Origin: Roseibacillus sp.
GTDB lineage: Bacteria; Verrucomicrobiota; Verrucomicrobiia; Verrucomicrobiales; Akkermansiaceae
NCBI GenBank assembly: GCA_002686085.1
Contig: NZAC01000020.1
Location: 42,783-79,161 of the forward strand
Reading direction: 5' to 3'
DNA length: 36,379 nt
Under the pieces are notes generated by a model. It saw nothing but the letters and a program-made list of their open reading frames with translations, was not told where the DNA came from and did not search any database. The translations under genes were made by a program, and so were the position numbers. Of the stretch, positions 291-8,225 are shown piece after piece. Each line of letters begins with the position of its first letter. Position 1 is the first letter of the stretch.

Positions 291-2447
291 TTAGTGCCTC
301 TTCAGGCCGACCTGTAGGGCGGCGTCCTCAAGCAGGGTGATTGCCTTCCTCCGCTGGTCGGGGGGGTGCTGAAGCCTTGCTCTTACGAGGGTGTGCTCTC
401 GGCCGTGCTGCTCATCGGCGGTCAGGAGGAGAAACGGTGAAGCCCTCAGATCCCATGTCTCGGTATCTCCACAGGGAGCCCATCCGTTCAGCCGAAGCGC
501 TTGAAGCAATTGCTGGCGCCCGGTTTCTGAGGACCCGAGGAAAGCAATTTCTGAGGTGCTGGTGGCGTTTCCGCCTTGCAGCGGGTGTGGGGCGGGAGAC
601 CTGTAGAAGCTCGGAGCAGGGCCTCCATGACGCCAACGCGAAAAGGCCCGGACAATTGGTTGGAGCAGATCACAGAGCCTGAGCAGGCCGCGGGAGGTAG
701 GCGAATTAAAACGACGGTGGAGCGGGCGGCGGGGCACTGCGTGATGGGCCAGTCCCTGATAACCCGCCTGCCCCATGGATCCGAAATAAATGACGGAGCG
801 GGTGTCTGCGCTGACGGGGCCGCCGCTGTAGACGCTGCCTTTCCAATGAATGCCCCCGTCACGAAATCTCCCGGGGTGGGCTTCGAAAAGTAAAGCTTCT
901 GCCCGGCCGTATCCCCCTTGTTGTCTAAGGTAGCGAGCAATGGAAGTGCGCCTGCGATGCCAGACGAATGCGGCAGGAGCGAACGCCAACTCCCATCCCT
1001 GATCGAGGAGGCGCCAGCAGAGGTCAACATCGTCTCCGGCTGTGACGAACTGGGGTTGAAACCCTCCAATCGAGTCCAAGGCTTCCCGGCGTACTACGAG
1101 ATTGCAGCCGGGAAGGTGCTCCGCGCAGAGGTCCCCGGAGAGGACGTGCGAAGGGGCTCCGGTAGCAGAGGCCACAATGGCTTCCTGTAAGCCCTCTGGG
1201 GAGGGAGGAAGATTAGGGCCCCCGGCGGCTCCGATGCGAGGGTGGTCAAAGCTCCGGGCGATCCAGAATAGCCAGTCGACGTCAGGCTGGCAGTCATCAT
1301 CCGTGTAGGCGATGAGGTCTCCTGAAGCCTGCGCCGCGCCAAAATTGCGGGCGTTGGAAAGACCTCCGTGTTGCTGTTTGAGGTAGCGTACTTCTGGGAA
1401 ACGGGTGGCAATCTCGGGAGTCTCGTCAGTGGATCCGTCGTCGACGACGAGAACCTCGAAATCTGGATATTCCAGCGAGGAACAGGCGTTGAGGCAGGCC
1501 TCGAGATTGGCTGCACCATTGTGGGTGCAGATCACCACTGATATCCGGGGAACAGTATTGAGAAGAAGGGAAGCGTGAGCGGTAGAGATCGTGGGGAGGC
1601 ATTCGCGAAGCGCTTCTATAACCGGTTTCTCGCTTCGGTCGTATCGGGTCAGGCCAAAGGCCCATTCCGCCATCTGAATTCCGCGGCTCGCCCAGCGGTC
1701 GGACCACGCAAAGAAGGTAGTGCCGGCCAGCCCCGCCGCCAGGCTCTCCTCGAGGTGGCCCTTCAGAAGGGCGGCCTGAGCGTCTTCGTGATTCCTGATG
1801 GTATCGAGCCCGAACTCGGTAATAAGGATTGGACGGTCTCCCGCGATATTCTGGAGGCGGGGGAGGTAGCGCGCTTGGGACTCGCGATCCTCAAGGTAGA
1901 CATTGAATGCGCTGAAGTCCGCATTCCTGGGTTCCAAGTATTCGGTGCTGGGGTAGTTGGCGTAACAGATGGGCAGGTCCGCAGTCTCTTCCCGGCAGAG
2001 TTCAATGATCTCCTCCAAGGCGCTTCTGACCTGTGACGGCCCCATCCAACGGACAAGGCTCGAAGGAATCTCGTTGGCAACAATCAGGGCGCCAAGAGCG
2101 GGATGAAGGCCATGCTCTCTCAAAAAATTAAGCAACCGTAATTCACCTTCGGCCCGGAGCCGGGGCTCGGCTAGAAAGTCCCGGCCCCATTCCCAGGGGA
2201 TTCCCACGAGGACTACGAGCCCATTCTCCTGCGCACAGTCAAGGAGGGCCTGAGTTGCACCCGTATAGACCCGGATTGCATTGAAACCACATGCGGCGAT
2301 CCGGGGGAATTCGATGGCGGGATCGAGTTCTGCATCGGAAGGAAACGGACCGAAGGTAACGCATTTCAGGAACAAGCGTTTGTCCCCGAGGGCTAGGAAC
2401 CTGCCATCGACCCGTAAACGCGCTGGTCCGGAGAAGGACACGCTCAA
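291..2447 (-). CDS. Fusion protein: clan GH-A glycoside hydrolase-like barrel plus family 2 glycosyltransferase
   Basis: Residues 10-290 read as a (beta/alpha)8 barrel like GH2/GH5 enzymes: LIVANEIP holds a candidate acid/base Glu126 after Asn, and ILITEFG holds a candidate nucleophile Glu211. Residues 300-520 are a GT-A, family 2 glycosyltransferase: RISVVICTHNG, VVDDGS (Asp336-337), YTDDD (the DxD-type metal site, 383-385) and GDDVDLCWR near 470. The last 150 residues are not recognised. There is no signal peptide or clear membrane segment, so a cytoplasmic or peripheral membrane site is likely. The start is TTG at 2445-2447, or GTG two codons later; the only in-frame stop upstream is the selD stop codon, 48 bases away, so the two genes share a reading frame and probably a transcript. 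Both active sites look intact. The substrate is unknown. Confidence 0.85.
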   Translation of the reverse strand: MSVSFSGPARLRVDGRFLALGDKRLFLKCVTFGPFPSDAELDPAIEFPRIAACGFNAIRVYTGATQALLDCAQENGLVVLVGIPWEWGRDFLAEPRLRAEGELRLLNFLREHGLHPALGALIVANEIPSSLVRWMGPSQVRSALEEIIELCREETADLPICYANYPSTEYLEPRNADFSAFNVYLEDRESQARYLPRLQNIAGDRPILITEFGLDTIRNHEDAQAALLKGHLEESLAAGLAGTTFFAWSDRWASRGIQMAEWAFGLTRYDRSEKPVIEALRECLPTISTAHASLLLNTVPRISVVICTHNGAANLEACLNACSSLEYPDFEVLVVDDGSTDETPEIATRFPEVRYLKQQHGGLSNARNFGAAQASGDLIAYTDDDCQPDVDWLFWIARSFDHPRIGAAGGPNLPPSPEGLQEAIVASATGAPSHVLSGDLCAEHLPGCNLVVRREALDSIGGFQPQFVTAGDDVDLCWRLLDQGWELAFAPAAFVWHRRRTSIARYLRQQGGYGRAEALLFEAHPGRFRDGGIHWKGSVYSGGPVSADTRSVIYFGSMGQAGYQGLAHHAVPRRPLHRRFNSPTSRGLLRLCDLLQPIVRAFSRWRHGGPAPSFYRSPAPHPLQGGNATSTSEIAFLGSSETGRQQLLQALRLNGWAPCGDTETWDLRASPFLLLTADEQHGREHTLVRARLQHPPDQRRKAITLLEDAALQVGLKRH

Positions 2448-2495: not shown

Positions 2496-3545
2496 CTAGA
2501 GAACCTCGATGTCGTGGTCATTACGGGGTTTCATTTCTCCAATTACTTCTGCGCATGGTGCTCCTTTTTCCTTAAGGAGGGAGAGGGCTTGGTCCAAGCT
2601 TTCCGGAGGCACGGAAAGGAGAAGCCCTCCACTGGTCTGGGCGTCAGCGAGAAGCAACTTCAGGGAATCTGGGATGCCAGCTGCGAACGAGGTGTTGGAT
2701 GCGGCTTCGAGATTAGATTTGGTTCCGCCCGGCACGCAACCTTCATCGATCAGGGAAAGAACCTTGTCGTCGATTGAGGGGACCTGCTTGCTACGAACTA
2801 CAGCAGTCAATCCACTTTCTCGCGCCACCGCTCCAAGGTGCCCAAGGAGGCCAAACCCGGTGACATCGGTTCCGCCCCGGACCAGTCCGGCCTTTGCGAG
2901 ATCCGCGCCCGGGGCATTGAGTGTGGTCATCAGGGCAATGGACCGGTCGGAAAGGGACCCGATATCCATGCCTCTTTTCGTCGCGGTGGAAAGAATTCCC
3001 GTTCCCAGAGGCTTGGTAAGAATAAGCAGGTCTCCTGCAGCCGCGCCCGCATTGGTAATCAGCTGGTCCGGGTGAACGAGGCCAGTGACAGAGAGACCGT
3101 AGAGCGGCTCGGGGTTCTGAACGGTATGTCCGCCTGCCAGGACGCATCCAGCTTCGGCCACCTTATCCGCGCCACCCTTGAGGATCTGGTTGACGTCCTC
3201 GAGAGAAAGATGCTCCAAGGGAACGCCAACCACGTTCATCGCGGTGACTGGAAGTCCCCCCATTGCGTAGACATCCGAGAGCGAGTTTGCGGCTGCGATT
3301 TGCCCGTAGGTATAGGGGTCGTCAACAATAGGGGTGAAGAAATCCAAGGTCTGCACCATGGCGAGCTCTTCGCTAAGCCGGTAGACAGCGGCATCGTCAG
3401 AGGACGCAGCTCCTACCAGGAGATCCTCATTCTCGATCTGGGTCAGCCCGCGCAGAACCTGCGCAAGGTCGGCTTGGCCGAGCTTGGAGGCTCAGCCCGC
3501 ACAGGACGACAGTTCTGTCAGGCGCTTGATGTCTTCGCGGGACAT
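2496..3545 (-). CDS. selD: Selenide, water dikinase (selenophosphate synthetase), itself a selenocysteine protein
   Basis: SelD makes selenophosphate from selenide and ATP; this is the selenium donor for selenocysteine and for 2-selenouridine in tRNA. Conventional reading starts at 3359 and lacks the active-site arm. Reading from ATG 3543-3545 gives 349 residues, the normal length, if the in-frame UGA at 3492-3494 is decoded as selenocysteine: SSCAG-U-ASKLGQ. U18 aligns with catalytic Cys17 and Lys21 with Lys20 of the E. coli enzyme. SSDDAAVYRL (Asp50-51) and DFFTPIVDDPYTYG are the ATP/Mg sites, and the later glycine-rich segments are intact. AGGA seven bases before the ATG is a rare good Shine-Dalgarno for this window. 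A hairpin after the UGA fits a bacterial SECIS. The gene probably heads an operon with the fusion gene. The start and the UGA reading are supported by homology on both sides of the stop. Confidence 0.94.
3450..3464 (-). promoter_or_regulatory. Candidate bacterial SECIS hairpin in selD
   Basis: In the selD message, 27 bases after the UGA, GCGCAG pairs perfectly with CTGCGC across a three-base GTT loop. Bacterial SECIS elements are small hairpins inside the coding region, shortly downstream of the UGA, with a G and U in or near the apical loop that SelB recognises. Stem, loop content and distance fit that pattern. A second possible stem, TCGGC/GCCGA around CAA, lies closer to the UGA and would be the rival structure. 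Not tested by folding. Confidence 0.6.
3492..3494 (-). other. In-frame UGA, probable selenocysteine codon of selD
   Basis: The codon read on the minus strand is TGA at position 18 of selD. Coding potential and family homology continue unbroken on both sides, and the residue it replaces is the catalytic Cys/Sec of SelD proteins. Selenocysteine at this site is known in other bacteria, for example Haemophilus influenzae SelD. A plain nonsense mutation is the alternative. Confidence 0.9.
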
Positions 3546-3683
3546 GGGTCGATCCTAGGGAAGAATCCGTCCGGGGCAAACATGACTGGTGGAATTCCGG
3601 ATCATTTTTGAATTGGTGGTGCTAGACCATTGCCAACAGGGCTTGGCGAGCCGACAGTCCGAGAACCTAAATTACCAGATCCC

Positions 3684-5411
3684 GTGATTCGTATCTTGCT
3701 CCTCCCTCTTCTTCCGTTGGGCATCAGCGCGCTCCATGCTCGTGAATATGGCCCTATCTGTGAATGGCATGAGGACCCTACTACAACGATGTCGATTCAC
3801 TGGGTGGCGGCCTCGAACGATGAGCGTCCGGGAGGAGAGTGGAAGCTCGGAGCTGCAGGATTTGGTTATGGTGATGATGATGATCAGACTGTGCTCAAGG
3901 CGATGCGGGGGAAATACCGTTCGGTATATATCCGCCGGGCCTATGAAGTTCCGGCCAAAGCGCCACGAGGGGCGGAGTTGACGGTAGGAATTCGATATGA
4001 CGACGCATTTATTCTCTACCGTGACGGCAAGGAGGTCCTTCGAAAAGGGGTTGAGGGGGCAGGCGCCAGTATTAGCAAAGTTAAGAAGCACGAGGCTGAG
4101 GTGTGGGAATACTTTAAAATCGGTCCTGCCGACCCGGGCCAGAAGGGAGTAATCGCGATTGAGGGCCATAACGAAAATATCGATAGTTCGGACTTTACCC
4201 TGCGCCCCCGGATCGATTACCGGGCCAACGGAAAGCTGTATCCGGTGATACGGGAAGGAGCGAGCTGGGCCTATCTTGCGGGGGGAGCTCCCGGGGCGGG
4301 ATGGACCAGAATTGGAGGCATCGGGGGCGATGAGGCAGCTGCCACGCGCTATAAGTTTTCTTACCGGAAGAAGGGCGAGAGGGAATGGTTGTCTGCCCCC
4401 ATTCGAGAGAGGAAGTTTGGAAAGACGGAGGACCTTGCCTTTAGCGCCGACCTTGGGGATCTCAAGCCCGCTAGCCGCTATGAGTTTCGGATTGTTCGGT
4501 GGGGGCGTCCGGTGGGCCCGTGGGAATTCGAAACTGCCCCGGCCCGCTTTCAGGATGGAATGAGTTTTGTGACAGGGGGAGACATGTATGGTACGCGGGC
4601 ATGGCTTGACGCAATGAACTTGCGAGCTGGAAAGGAAGATCCTCTTTTTGCTCTGCTCGGAGGTGACCTTGCCTACGCGAATGGGACTAATGGCGGACGG
4701 TGGCGGGATTGGCTGGATTCGTGGAACAAATGTGCGGTCGCTCCCGATGGCCGGCTTATTCCAATGGTCGTGGCAATCGGGAACCATGAGGTGAAGGGAT
4801 ATCAATATCGCCCCAAGAACGCGCCAGGGAGAGAGGATGCCCCATTTTTCTATAGTCTCTTTTCCGGAAAGTCCGAGGGAGCGAATTTTACTGTCGATTT
4901 TGGAGATTACCTGAGCCTTGTTGGCGTTGACTCGGGGCACACCGCCAATATCGCCGCGCAGACTCAGTGGCTGGGAAGGGTCCTCGGAAACCGGTTAGGT
5001 ATTCCTCGGCAGTTTGTCTGCTATCACCGCCCAGCCTGGGGGACCGGGGTAAAGGCTGATGCCACCGATATCCGGAGGGAATGGTCTCCGTTGTTCGAGC
5101 AGTTCAAGGTGGATTGTGTTTTTGAGAATGATCACCATACCTACAAGCGGACTCATCCTATTGTCGGGGGTGAGCGTAGCGACAAAGACGGAATTCTTTA
5201 CATGGGCGATGGATCGTGGGGCGTGAAGACGCGAAACATTCCCAAGGACTGGAAAAAGCGAACCTATCTTGCGGAAGCGCAAGCCTTGAGGCATCTCATC
5301 AAGGTGACTCTGAAAAGAGATGAATTCCTCTACGAGGGAATGACAGAGGATGGAAAAATTTTCGATAAGACGACGAGGCCCTTGCGTAGAGGCGAGGCAG
5401 ATACCCGATAA
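3684..5411 (+). CDS. Secreted purple-acid-phosphatase-like metallophosphoesterase
   Basis: A 575-residue exported protein. GTG at 3684 is preferred over an upstream TTG at 3630 because it starts directly at a signal peptide (VIRILLLPLLPLGISALHA, probably cleaved after ALHA). An N-terminal beta-rich region is followed by a fibronectin-like domain near residues 190-285, as in purple acid phosphatases, and then the catalytic domain. Metal-site motifs, numbered from this GTG, are GGDMYG (Asp300), GGDLAY (Asp328, Tyr331), GNHE (Asn367, His368) and CYHRP (His448). The last motif is NDHHTYKR (482-489), where the family usually has GHxHxYxR, so one metal-ligand His is Asp here. The likely role is phosphate release from organic phosphoesters in the periplasm or outside. 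It is divergent from selD across 138 bases and co-directional with the helicase gene. Confidence 0.85.
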   Translation: MIRILLLPLLPLGISALHAREYGPICEWHEDPTTTMSIHWVAASNDERPGGEWKLGAAGFGYGDDDDQTVLKAMRGKYRSVYIRRAYEVPAKAPRGAELTVGIRYDDAFILYRDGKEVLRKGVEGAGASISKVKKHEAEVWEYFKIGPADPGQKGVIAIEGHNENIDSSDFTLRPRIDYRANGKLYPVIREGASWAYLAGGAPGAGWTRIGGIGGDEAAATRYKFSYRKKGEREWLSAPIRERKFGKTEDLAFSADLGDLKPASRYEFRIVRWGRPVGPWEFETAPARFQDGMSFVTGGDMYGTRAWLDAMNLRAGKEDPLFALLGGDLAYANGTNGGRWRDWLDSWNKCAVAPDGRLIPMVVAIGNHEVKGYQYRPKNAPGREDAPFFYSLFSGKSEGANFTVDFGDYLSLVGVDSGHTANIAAQTQWLGRVLGNRLGIPRQFVCYHRPAWGTGVKADATDIRREWSPLFEQFKVDCVFENDHHTYKRTHPIVGGERSDKDGILYMGDGSWGVKTRNIPKDWKKRTYLAEAQALRHLIKVTLKRDEFLYEGMTEDGKIFDKTTRPLRRGEADTR

Positions 5412-5507: not shown

Positions 5508-8225
5508 ATGGCCGTGAACTTATCCCTCCGCGAGTTTCTCGTTAGTGGCGCGTGGAAGGAGCGATTTGACGGATTCGTACTAGAGGACGGGAGCAAGCTG
5601 GCCCGGAAACGCCGGGTCTCGGAAATGTCGTGGGAATCCCTTGAGGACGGCGGCGGAGTGCTTGCCGCACGAGTGCAGGATTTGGAGGGCGAGTATTACG
5701 AGGTAGAGATTTCCATCTGGGAGGAGGGTGAGGGCCTCTGGGAAATAGATACCTCCTGCAGTTGTCCCTATGCTTACTACTGCCAACATGCGGCGGCCGC
5801 TCTCTTGGGAGCGGGCAAAAAAACCATGGTGGATCGCCTTTTGGAGGGAGGCAGTGCGTATGTTCGGGTCCCCGTTGCGGGATCGGTGAAGGAGAGGCCT
5901 CCTCGCGAGACGATGCCCCGGCAGACTCTGGATGTTTCTCCAACGTTCCGCATGGAAGTATTGGTGGAGCCCGCCCATAGCCGCTCCGTTCAGATGCTGT
6001 TGCAATCTTTGAGAGCGGCGAACCGGGATGAATGGTTAGTGGCCAGGCCGACGGCGAGCTATGAGGGGCACGACCTTCCGCTTCATACGGGTGGCGATAG
6101 CGCCGTCCTGATTGAAACAGGAGATGGCATGCTCGAAATTGTGCGGGACTTGAAGGCGGAGGGGGCTGCCGTACGAGACCTGGCTCAGCTTGGCCTGACT
6201 CACTTGGGAGCCCAGCCGAGTTATCGATTCCTGCTAGGATTGGAGCGAGAGAGAGACGCGGAGCCCCCCGCCGAGTCTGCATGGTTTCCCGAGCCCAGCT
6301 TGAATACACCGGATCTCTTCTGGCCTTGGTTTCGGGCTGAAGCTATTCCCAAGCTTGAGAGCCGCGGCTGGGAAGTCTTGGTGGATAAGGAGGTTGGCTT
6401 TCCTGTCTACGTCACAGAGCCGGGCGACTGGGAAGGGGCCCTTTCTGAGCAGACAGGCGGATGGTTCTCCTTGTCGGTAGGGTTCGATCTGGATGGAGAG
6501 CGGTTGGACCTTCTCCCGATCCTCGCAAAGCTGTTGGAAGACGGGACGCTCGATATGCTGGATGAACTCTCGGACCGGTCCCATCACCTGGTCTACTTAC
6601 CCGAGGGCGGAGCGCTCAAGATCCCGGTAGAGCGGCTCAAGCGGATCCTGCGGCAGCTTGCCTCTCTGGTGGACCCCAATCGACCCTTTCTCCACCCGGT
6701 GGACGCGGCCCATCTGGCTTCAAGCTCTGAGCTCTCCCTCGACCCTGGCAAGGGGTTGGACCAGCTGGTAAAGCAGATTGAGAAGCTCAGACAACCTGCC
6801 ACAAAAGACCCCCCTGAGGGGGTCCAGGCGACGCTTCGAGGCTACCAGCTCGAAGGCTTCCAGTGGATGCAGGGCCTTGCCAAGTGTCAGTTGAATGGAA
6901 TCCTTGCGGATGACATGGGACTCGGTAAGACCTTGCAGACTCTTACGCATATCCTTGCCGAAAGAGTCTCGGGTAGAAGTGAAGGCCGGCCAACCTTGGT
7001 GGTAGCTCCGACCTCGGTAGTGCCAAACTGGAGGAAGGAGGCAGCTAAGTTTGTCCCCTCCTTGAGCGTTTTGGTTCTGCAGGGTCCGGGGAGAAAGAAA
7101 GACTTCAGGAACGTGCCTCATGCGGATGTGGTGCTCACTTCCTACGCGTTGCTCCAGCGCGATGTGGAAACGCTGGGAAGCATGGATTTTCATCTGGTCG
7201 TTCTGGACGAGGCTCAGAATATTAAGAATCCGGCGGCAAAAGTGAGCAAGGCCGCCTGCAAGTTGCAAGCGGCCCAGCGGCTCTGTCTATCGGGCACACC
7301 CATTGAGAATAATCTGGGCGAGCTCTGGTCGTTGATGCACTTCCTCCTGCCCGGCTTTCTCGGAAGCGAGGAGGTATTCAGGACCCGCTACCAAAATCCG
7401 ATTGAGAAAGAAGGCAACGAGGACCGGAAGGAAGATCTCAGGACGCGGATTGTGCCCCTCATCCTCCGCCGGACGAAAGATGAGGTGGCATCGGAACTTC
7501 CTCCGAAGACCACTCTGATCCACCCAATTGAATTGAACACCGGGCAAAAGGATCTCTACGAGACGGTACGTGCGACGATGGATCGGAGGGTTCGACAGGC
7601 AATTGCCGCGCAGGGCATCGAGCAGAGCCGCATTGTCTTTCTGGATGCTCTGCTGAAGTTGCGTCAAATCTGCTGCGATCCCCGGTTATTAGGCATGAGA
7701 GAGGCCAATGAACTGGCCTCCGCTAAACTAGATTATCTCATCGAACTCTTGGATATGCTTGTCAAAGAGGGCCGTCGGATTTTGCTTTTCTCGCAGTTCA
7801 CCACGATGCTGGGCCTCATTCGGGAGAGGCTGCAGGCACAGGGAATTTCCTATCTTGAGCTCACGGGCTCATCGCGCAATCGAGGTGAGCTTGTGGAGCA
7901 ATTCCAAGCGGGGGAGATGCCCCTTTTCCTGATTTCTCTGAAAGCCGGCGGCACAGGACTTAATCTGACCGCAGCGGATACTGTAGTTCATTACGATCCG
8001 TGGTGGAATCCAGCTGCAGAAGCTCAGGCGACAGATCGCGCCTACCGGATTGGCCAGACCAGGCCTGTTTTTGTTCACCGGCTGATCTGCACGGGAACAG
8101 TAGAGGAGCGGATTCAGAAGCTACAGGTTGATAAGGCCAAGCTGGCGGATGACCTTCTGGCAGGCGCAAACAAAGTTATTGCCCCTGATGAGGACACCTT
8201 GAAGCAGCTTCTAGCGCCCTTATAG
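5508..8225 (+). CDS. SWI2/SNF2-family ATPase with N-terminal SWIM zinc finger
   Basis: This is a 905-residue DNA-dependent ATPase of the bacterial SNF2 (HepA/RapA-like) group. A SWIM zinc finger, CxCx5CxH, is at Cys84, Cys86, Cys92 and His94 (CSCPYAYYCQH). A long middle region resembles the bacterial SNF2-associated domain. The helicase core begins near residue 440: ADDMGLGKT (motif I, about 466-474), LDEAQ (motif II, about 566-570), LSGTPIENN (motif III), LLFSQFTTM (motif IV), LKAGGTGLNL (motif V) and DRAYRIGQ (motif VI, about 842-849). All ATPase motifs are intact. It probably remodels protein-DNA or RNA polymerase-DNA complexes; the exact task cannot be told from sequence. Start ATG 5508 gives MAVNLSLREF; no Shine-Dalgarno is visible. 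It ends 17 bases from the convergent AlgJ-like gene. Confidence 0.93.
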   Translation: MAVNLSLREFLVSGAWKERFDGFVLEDGSKLARKRRVSEMSWESLEDGGGVLAARVQDLEGEYYEVEISIWEEGEGLWEIDTSCSCPYAYYCQHAAAALLGAGKKTMVDRLLEGGSAYVRVPVAGSVKERPPRETMPRQTLDVSPTFRMEVLVEPAHSRSVQMLLQSLRAANRDEWLVARPTASYEGHDLPLHTGGDSAVLIETGDGMLEIVRDLKAEGAAVRDLAQLGLTHLGAQPSYRFLLGLERERDAEPPAESAWFPEPSLNTPDLFWPWFRAEAIPKLESRGWEVLVDKEVGFPVYVTEPGDWEGALSEQTGGWFSLSVGFDLDGERLDLLPILAKLLEDGTLDMLDELSDRSHHLVYLPEGGALKIPVERLKRILRQLASLVDPNRPFLHPVDAAHLASSSELSLDPGKGLDQLVKQIEKLRQPATKDPPEGVQATLRGYQLEGFQWMQGLAKCQLNGILADDMGLGKTLQTLTHILAERVSGRSEGRPTLVVAPTSVVPNWRKEAAKFVPSLSVLVLQGPGRKKDFRNVPHADVVLTSYALLQRDVETLGSMDFHLVVLDEAQNIKNPAAKVSKAACKLQAAQRLCLSGTPIENNLGELWSLMHFLLPGFLGSEEVFRTRYQNPIEKEGNEDRKEDLRTRIVPLILRRTKDEVASELPPKTTLIHPIELNTGQKDLYETVRATMDRRVRQAIAAQGIEQSRIVFLDALLKLRQICCDPRLLGMREANELASAKLDYLIELLDMLVKEGRRILLFSQFTTMLGLIRERLQAQGISYLELTGSSRNRGELVEQFQAGEMPLFLISLKAGGTGLNLTAADTVVHYDPWWNPAAEAQATDRAYRIGQTRPVFVHRLICTGTVEERIQKLQVDKAKLADDLLAGANKVIAPDEDTLKQLLAPL

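What the first reader, a model, noticed from the sequence alone, without database searches (positions are those of the whole stretch)
2496..3545. selD is itself a selenocysteine gene
Ordinary gene calling would start at 3359 and miss 62 residues. The frame upstream is full SelD homology broken only by UGA at the catalytic Cys/Sec position, followed by a hairpin with a GU-containing loop. This implies that the organism has SelA, SelB and a selenocysteine tRNA, and probably other selenoproteins.
Basis: partly seen in the sequence, partly recalled or inferred. Interest (0 to 1): 0.7.

Follow-up and report, generated by a model that had tools for sequence, protein, structure and literature searches.

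The report
Selenocysteine-containing SelD of a marine verrucomicrobium
The gene for the enzyme that activates selenium in this marine Verrucomicrobiota bacterium (Roseibacillus group) contains an in-frame UGA read as selenocysteine, so the enzyme needs its own product to be made; the reading is right, but this is a long-known kind of selenoprotein.

Summary
Confirmed. On the minus strand, 3545-2496 is a 349-residue SelD (NCBIfam selD, 375 bits) with one in-frame UGA at codon 18 (3494-3492), the position of the catalytic Cys17 of E. coli SelD. Ordinary ORF calling starts at 3359 and loses 62 residues. The genome carries selA, selB (with SECIS-binding winged-helix domains), selC (anticodon UCA) and selU. 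All 60 near-full-length SelDs of the clade within the family carry one TGA; one divergent family member has no stop. The bacterial SECIS is the hairpin GCGCAG-GUU-CUGCGC, its loop 33 nt after the UGA, supported by compensatory changes (0/500 shuffles) and by wobble sites: of 229 four-fold codon columns in the gene, only two are invariant, both in this stem. The most stable single-sequence fold is a different, non-conserved structure. No Sec formate dehydrogenase was found. Sec-SelD is a standard selenoprotein, and the pattern FdhA-less, Sec-SelD, selU was described in 2006. Only the lineage, the rare CxxU motif and the near-universal fixation add anything. New member of a known kind; interest about 0.25.

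The parts
2496..3545 (-). selD, selenide water dikinase, 349 residues with Sec at residue 18
3360..3545 (-). N-terminal 62 codons lost by ordinary gene calling; conserved as protein in orthologs
3492..3494 (-). in-frame UGA (Sec codon 18), in a C-x-x-U motif (Cys15-Ala-Gly-Sec18)
3450..3464 (-). bacterial SECIS apical hairpin GCGCAG-GUU-CUGCGC; loop 3458-3456, 33 nt after the UGA
3553..3556 (-). AGGA, possible ribosome-binding site 7 nt before the ATG (weak: not kept in all relatives)
291..2447 (-). neighbouring 718-aa ORF, glycosyltransferase-like by eye; next to selD in close Roseibacillus; no sign of a role in selenium use
3630..5411 (+). divergent phosphoesterase-like ORF (by eye); neighbour conserved in Roseibacillus; no sign of a role in selenium use

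Best explanation
The gene encodes selenophosphate synthetase (SelD) whose catalytic residue is selenocysteine. Ribosomes reach the UGA at codon 18; SelB-GTP with Sec-tRNA-Sec, bound to the in-frame SECIS hairpin 33 nt downstream, inserts Sec instead of letting the ribosome terminate. The finished SelD makes selenophosphate from selenide and ATP. SelA uses it to make Sec-tRNA-Sec, which SelD itself, a peroxiredoxin and probably a thioredoxin-like protein need; SelU uses it for 2-selenouridine in tRNA. Shown here by sequence: the protein family, the UGA at the catalytic position and its conservation, the hairpin under selection, and the full set of machinery genes. Inferred from the known families: Sec insertion itself, the catalytic role and the self-dependent loop.
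For: SelD family match 375 bits and alignment of codon 18 to E. coli Cys17. selA, selB, selC, selU present. 60 SelD genes in 59 family genomes each carry exactly one TGA; the codon was read directly at position 18 in the loci. Most distant relatives have TGC or TGT there. tRNA-Sec was found in 44 of 145 family genomes, about 40 of which also have SelD. Hairpin: 99.3% of cells paired, 21 double changes, 0/500 shuffles as high, slid versions far lower; a wider set adds changes at a third pair. Only two of 229 four-fold wobble columns in the gene are invariant, both in the stem. It meets the published bSECIS limits: loop 3-9 nt, upper stem 4-16 bp, G in the first two loop positions, 16-37 nt from the UGA (PMC13188914). 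A second selenoprotein (Prx) is TGA in this genus and TGC in the more distant orthologs read, and the Cys versions lack the hairpin.
Against: No direct protein evidence. The most stable single-sequence fold of the 40 nt from the UGA on (z -3.8) is a different structure that relatives do not keep. No Rfam family matches the hairpin. Eight SelD-bearing congeners show no tRNA-Sec hit at the threshold used, most likely because MAGs are incomplete and selC sits near contig ends.
Confidence: 0.96

Rival explanations
1. The UGA is a true stop or an assembly error, and the gene is a pseudogene or starts at 3359 as a 287-residue SelD without the catalytic loop.
For: Ordinary ORF calling gives 2496-3359.
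Against: All 60 near-full-length clade orthologs carry one TGA, read directly at codon 18 wherever loci were fetched; the residues on both sides are conserved with synonymous changes, and wobble sites downstream are constrained. The lost part holds the catalytic residues.
Confidence: 0.01
2. The organism reads UGA generally as an amino acid (changed code), or this UGA is read through with Cys or Trp rather than Sec.
For: None found.
Against: 8 of 23 plausible genes in the window end in TGA; selA, selB and a UCA tRNA-Sec are present; a SECIS hairpin is under selection.
Confidence: 0.02
3. Sec is inserted, but the signal is the more stable alternative fold (GAGCCU...AGGUUC around UCGGC-CAA-GCCGA) rather than the GUU hairpin.
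For: Lowest free energy of the 40-nt segment, z -3.8.
Against: Its pairs are broken in several relatives without compensation, while the GUU hairpin shows compensatory changes.
Confidence: 0.03

Closest known systems
Sec-containing SelD (prokaryotic selenophosphate synthetase, SPS)
   Same: UGA always at the same N-terminal position; 19% of the SelD genes detected in a 223-genome reference set have Sec (PMC4561486); bSECIS inside the coding region.
   Different: Lineage (Roseibacillus/Akkermansiaceae) not mentioned in the papers read; the CxxU motif is the minority form, about 5.6% of single-domain Sec-SelDs in ocean metagenomes (PMC2398784).
Sec trait without Sec-FdhA but with Sec-SelD and selenouridine synthase (PMC1794560)
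   Same: No in-frame stop in any of the three molybdopterin oxidoreductases; SelU present; SelD is Sec.
   Different: Here SelD is not the only selenoprotein: a Sec-peroxiredoxin and a probable Sec thioredoxin-like protein are also present.
Sec-peroxiredoxin (TxxU) and Trx-like UxxC selenoproteins
   Same: Motifs TGGU and UPPC fit the published classes (PMC13188914).
   Different: The Trx-like protein has an extra N-terminal region of about 120 residues with no Pfam match.

Membership tests
Selenide, water dikinase (SelD) | Match to the curated selD equivalog over its cut-off | tested here: met
   TIGR00476 375 bits against cut-off 125; AIRS and AIRS_C domains
Selenide, water dikinase (SelD) | Catalytic Cys or Sec followed by the essential Lys | tested here: met
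   U18 and K21 align to E. coli Cys17 and Lys20; that these are essential in E. coli is from own knowledge
Selenide, water dikinase (SelD) | ATP- and selenide-dependent selenophosphate synthesis | not testable with these tools
   needs an enzyme assay
Bacterial selenoprotein gene | In-frame UGA aligned with Cys of homologs | tested here: met
   TGC or TGT in most distant SelDs
[quoted passage not shown]
   6-bp stem, GUU loop, 33 nt; compensatory changes; limits from PMC13188914
Bacterial selenoprotein gene | Genome has selA, selB and selC | tested here: met
Bacterial selenoprotein gene | Selenocysteine present in the protein | not testable with these tools
   needs mass spectrometry or 75Se labelling

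The most novel reading that the evidence does not exclude
In this family the Sec in SelD is kept as a working switch rather than only a catalytic gain: because SelD needs its own product, low selenium would lower SelD read-through and shut down the whole selenium economy at once. This would explain why no Cys reversion was seen among 60 clade genes although Cys forms occur in related families of the class. The conserved Cys three residues before Sec (CxxU) could then act as a redox partner. Nothing here tests this.
Probability: 0.08. Interest if true: 0.55.

Novelty: new member of a known kind. Interest (0 to 1): 0.25.

Why it matters
It shows that a marine Verrucomicrobiota lineage uses selenocysteine, and that its SelD, peroxiredoxin and a thioredoxin-like gene are likely to be truncated or split by ordinary annotation. 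The family, with Sec-using and apparently selenium-free genera side by side and a peroxiredoxin that is Sec in some and Cys in others, would be a good natural set for studying gain and loss of the trait. It does not open a new kind of system.

Tried and rejected
Rfam searches of the region found no SECIS family. The single-sequence minimum-energy fold was considered as the SECIS and rejected, since relatives do not keep its pairs. The idea that SelD might be the only selenoprotein, which would have made the loop purely self-serving, was rejected after finding the Sec-peroxiredoxin. Sec-FdhA was sought and not found (by eye L134 is nitrate-reductase-like, L135 FdhF/YdeP-like and L136 NuoG-like). 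SelW-like proteins were sought and not found. A Cys-to-Sec gain in SelD was considered: on the tree Sec is the commonest state of the Verrucomicrobiae clade with two Cys lines inside it, in keeping with Sec-to-Cys loss, but it was a quick tree without a root.

Full report
What is there. The minus-strand frame 3545-2496 encodes a 349-residue protein broken by one TGA at codon 18 (3494-3492). It is SelD: TIGR00476 at 375 bits, cut-off 125, with AIRS and AIRS_C domains. The alignment to E. coli SelD puts codon 18 on Cys17 and K21 on Lys20. Only one selD is present in the genome.

Organism. The closest records are Roseibacillus sp. and Akkermansiaceae MAGs (Verrucomicrobiota), up to 96% protein identity. 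The genome is 3.95 Mb in 73 contigs, 96.5% complete.

Machinery. selC: 67.3 bits, over the Rfam cut-off, ARAGORN anticodon TCA. selA: 503 bits. selB: 281 bits, a 662-residue ORF with GTPase, SelB beta-barrel and SelB-wing_2 and wing_3 domains. selU (tRNA 2-selenouridine synthase): 333 bits.

Is the UGA real? In 145 family genomes, 60 near-full-length SelD genes in 59 genomes, 51-100% identical, each contain exactly one TGA (counted by hand from the table). One divergent SelD (G101, 47% identity) has none, and several genera, among them g3, g11 and g14, showed no SelD in the genomes sampled. I read the codon directly in the Roseibacillus, Akkermansiaceae and other family loci fetched: always TGA at codon 18. 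Most distant SelDs have TGC or TGT. tRNA-Sec was found in 44 of the 145 genomes, about 40 of which also have SelD. TGA is an ordinary stop in this genome: 8 of 23 plausible genes of the window end with it.

The SECIS. Counting the T of TGA as 1, the hairpin is 31-36/40-45, GCGCAG-GUU-CUGCGC, loop at 37-39, 33 nt after the UGA (window 3464-3450). In 25 distinct family sequences 99.3% of cells pair, with 21 double changes; 0 of 500 shuffles reach the observed score, and sliding the partner by 1-3 columns destroys it. A wider set of 14, including another genus of the family (L170), another family of the class (L173), a Bacillota and a Chloroflexota SelD, keeps the register and adds double changes at a third pair. 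The shuffles ignore relatedness, so the numbers are not probabilities. An independent check is codon usage: among 229 columns with four-fold codons in selD, only codons 28 and 31 have an invariant third base, and both lie in this stem; the wobble base of codon 30, in the loop, varies freely. The hairpin meets the published bSECIS limits on stem, loop, G position and spacing (PMC13188914). By contrast the most stable fold of the first 40 nt, z -3.8, uses other pairs that relatives break.

Other selenoproteins. A peroxiredoxin on contig 64 reads YPKALTGGUTKQVCSLRD, Sec at the peroxidatic Cys. All 14 same-genus loci read, this genome included, have TGA; the 11 more distant loci read have TGC. In the wider list SelD-free genera show Cys forms and SelD-bearing genera often TGA forms. 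Its hairpin GUUURCG-GGA-CGYAAAC is intact in all eight distinct sequences, with one compensated pair, and is absent from the Cys forms by eye; with so few sequences the covariation alone is not decisive (40 of 500 shuffles reach it). A thioredoxin-like protein on contig 20 (outside the window) reads YFSASWUPPCRTSAPQL, Sec at the first Cys of CxxC; its hairpin is unconvincing and relatives were not checked, so I call it probable only. None of three molybdopterin oxidoreductases has a stop, and no SelW-like protein was found.

Mechanism. Sec-tRNA-Sec is made by SelA from selenophosphate, which SelD makes; SelB delivers it to the UGA when bound to the hairpin. SelD therefore depends on its own product. 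The genes and the RNA signal are shown; Sec insertion and catalysis follow from the known families and were not measured.

What is known. SelD with Sec at this position is a standard selenoprotein (PMC1794560, PMC4561486) and among the most widespread in ocean data (PMC2398784). Zhang et al. noted that Sec users without FdhA have Sec-SelD and mostly the selenouridine trait (PMC1794560); this genome fits. The CxxU motif (Cys15-x-x-Sec18) is a known minority form, about 5.6% of single-domain Sec-SelDs in that ocean set (PMC2398784). I found no paper in the held library that describes selenoproteins of Roseibacillus; the surveys' supplementary tables could not be read, and their genome sets may include it.

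Evolution. On a quick, unrooted 75-row tree the Verrucomicrobiae SelDs form one supported group in which Sec is the commonest state and two Cys lines sit beside a Sec sister. That suits Sec-to-Cys loss, the known trend, but direction is not proven.

Verdict. The finding is correct in observation and interpretation, and ordinary in kind.

Noticed in passing
L144 (G000:C64:28000-33000), UGA at C64:30372 minus: A second selenoprotein gene: peroxiredoxin with Sec at the peroxidatic Cys (TGGU) and its own conserved hairpin; Cys orthologs elsewhere in the family lack the hairpin.
   Followed up: yes
L143 (G000:C20:3000-6500), UGA at C20:4738 minus: Probable selenoprotein: thioredoxin-like protein with UPPC active site and an N-terminal region of about 120 residues without Pfam match; the hairpin after the UGA is weak.
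   Followed up: partly
L131:19543-19634 (G000:C29), and family hits: selC lies within a few hundred bases of a contig end in several assemblies (G000; by coordinates also G062, G007, G137), which may explain missing tRNA-Sec hits and might point to a repeated or inserted element next to selC.
   Followed up: no
G101:C66:5837-6835: A divergent SelD without in-frame stop in genus g7, whose other sampled members lack SelD; it may be a horizontal acquisition.
   Followed up: no
L088 (Chloroflexota MAG), about 6049-6093: This SelD, only 46% identical, shares the SCAGU motif and nearly the same apical hairpin, GCGCAGGUCCUGCGC.
   Followed up: partly
window 9751-36252: About twelve sulfatase-like genes by eye, as is usual for marine Verrucomicrobiota that degrade sulfated polysaccharides; not tested with family models.
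   Followed up: no
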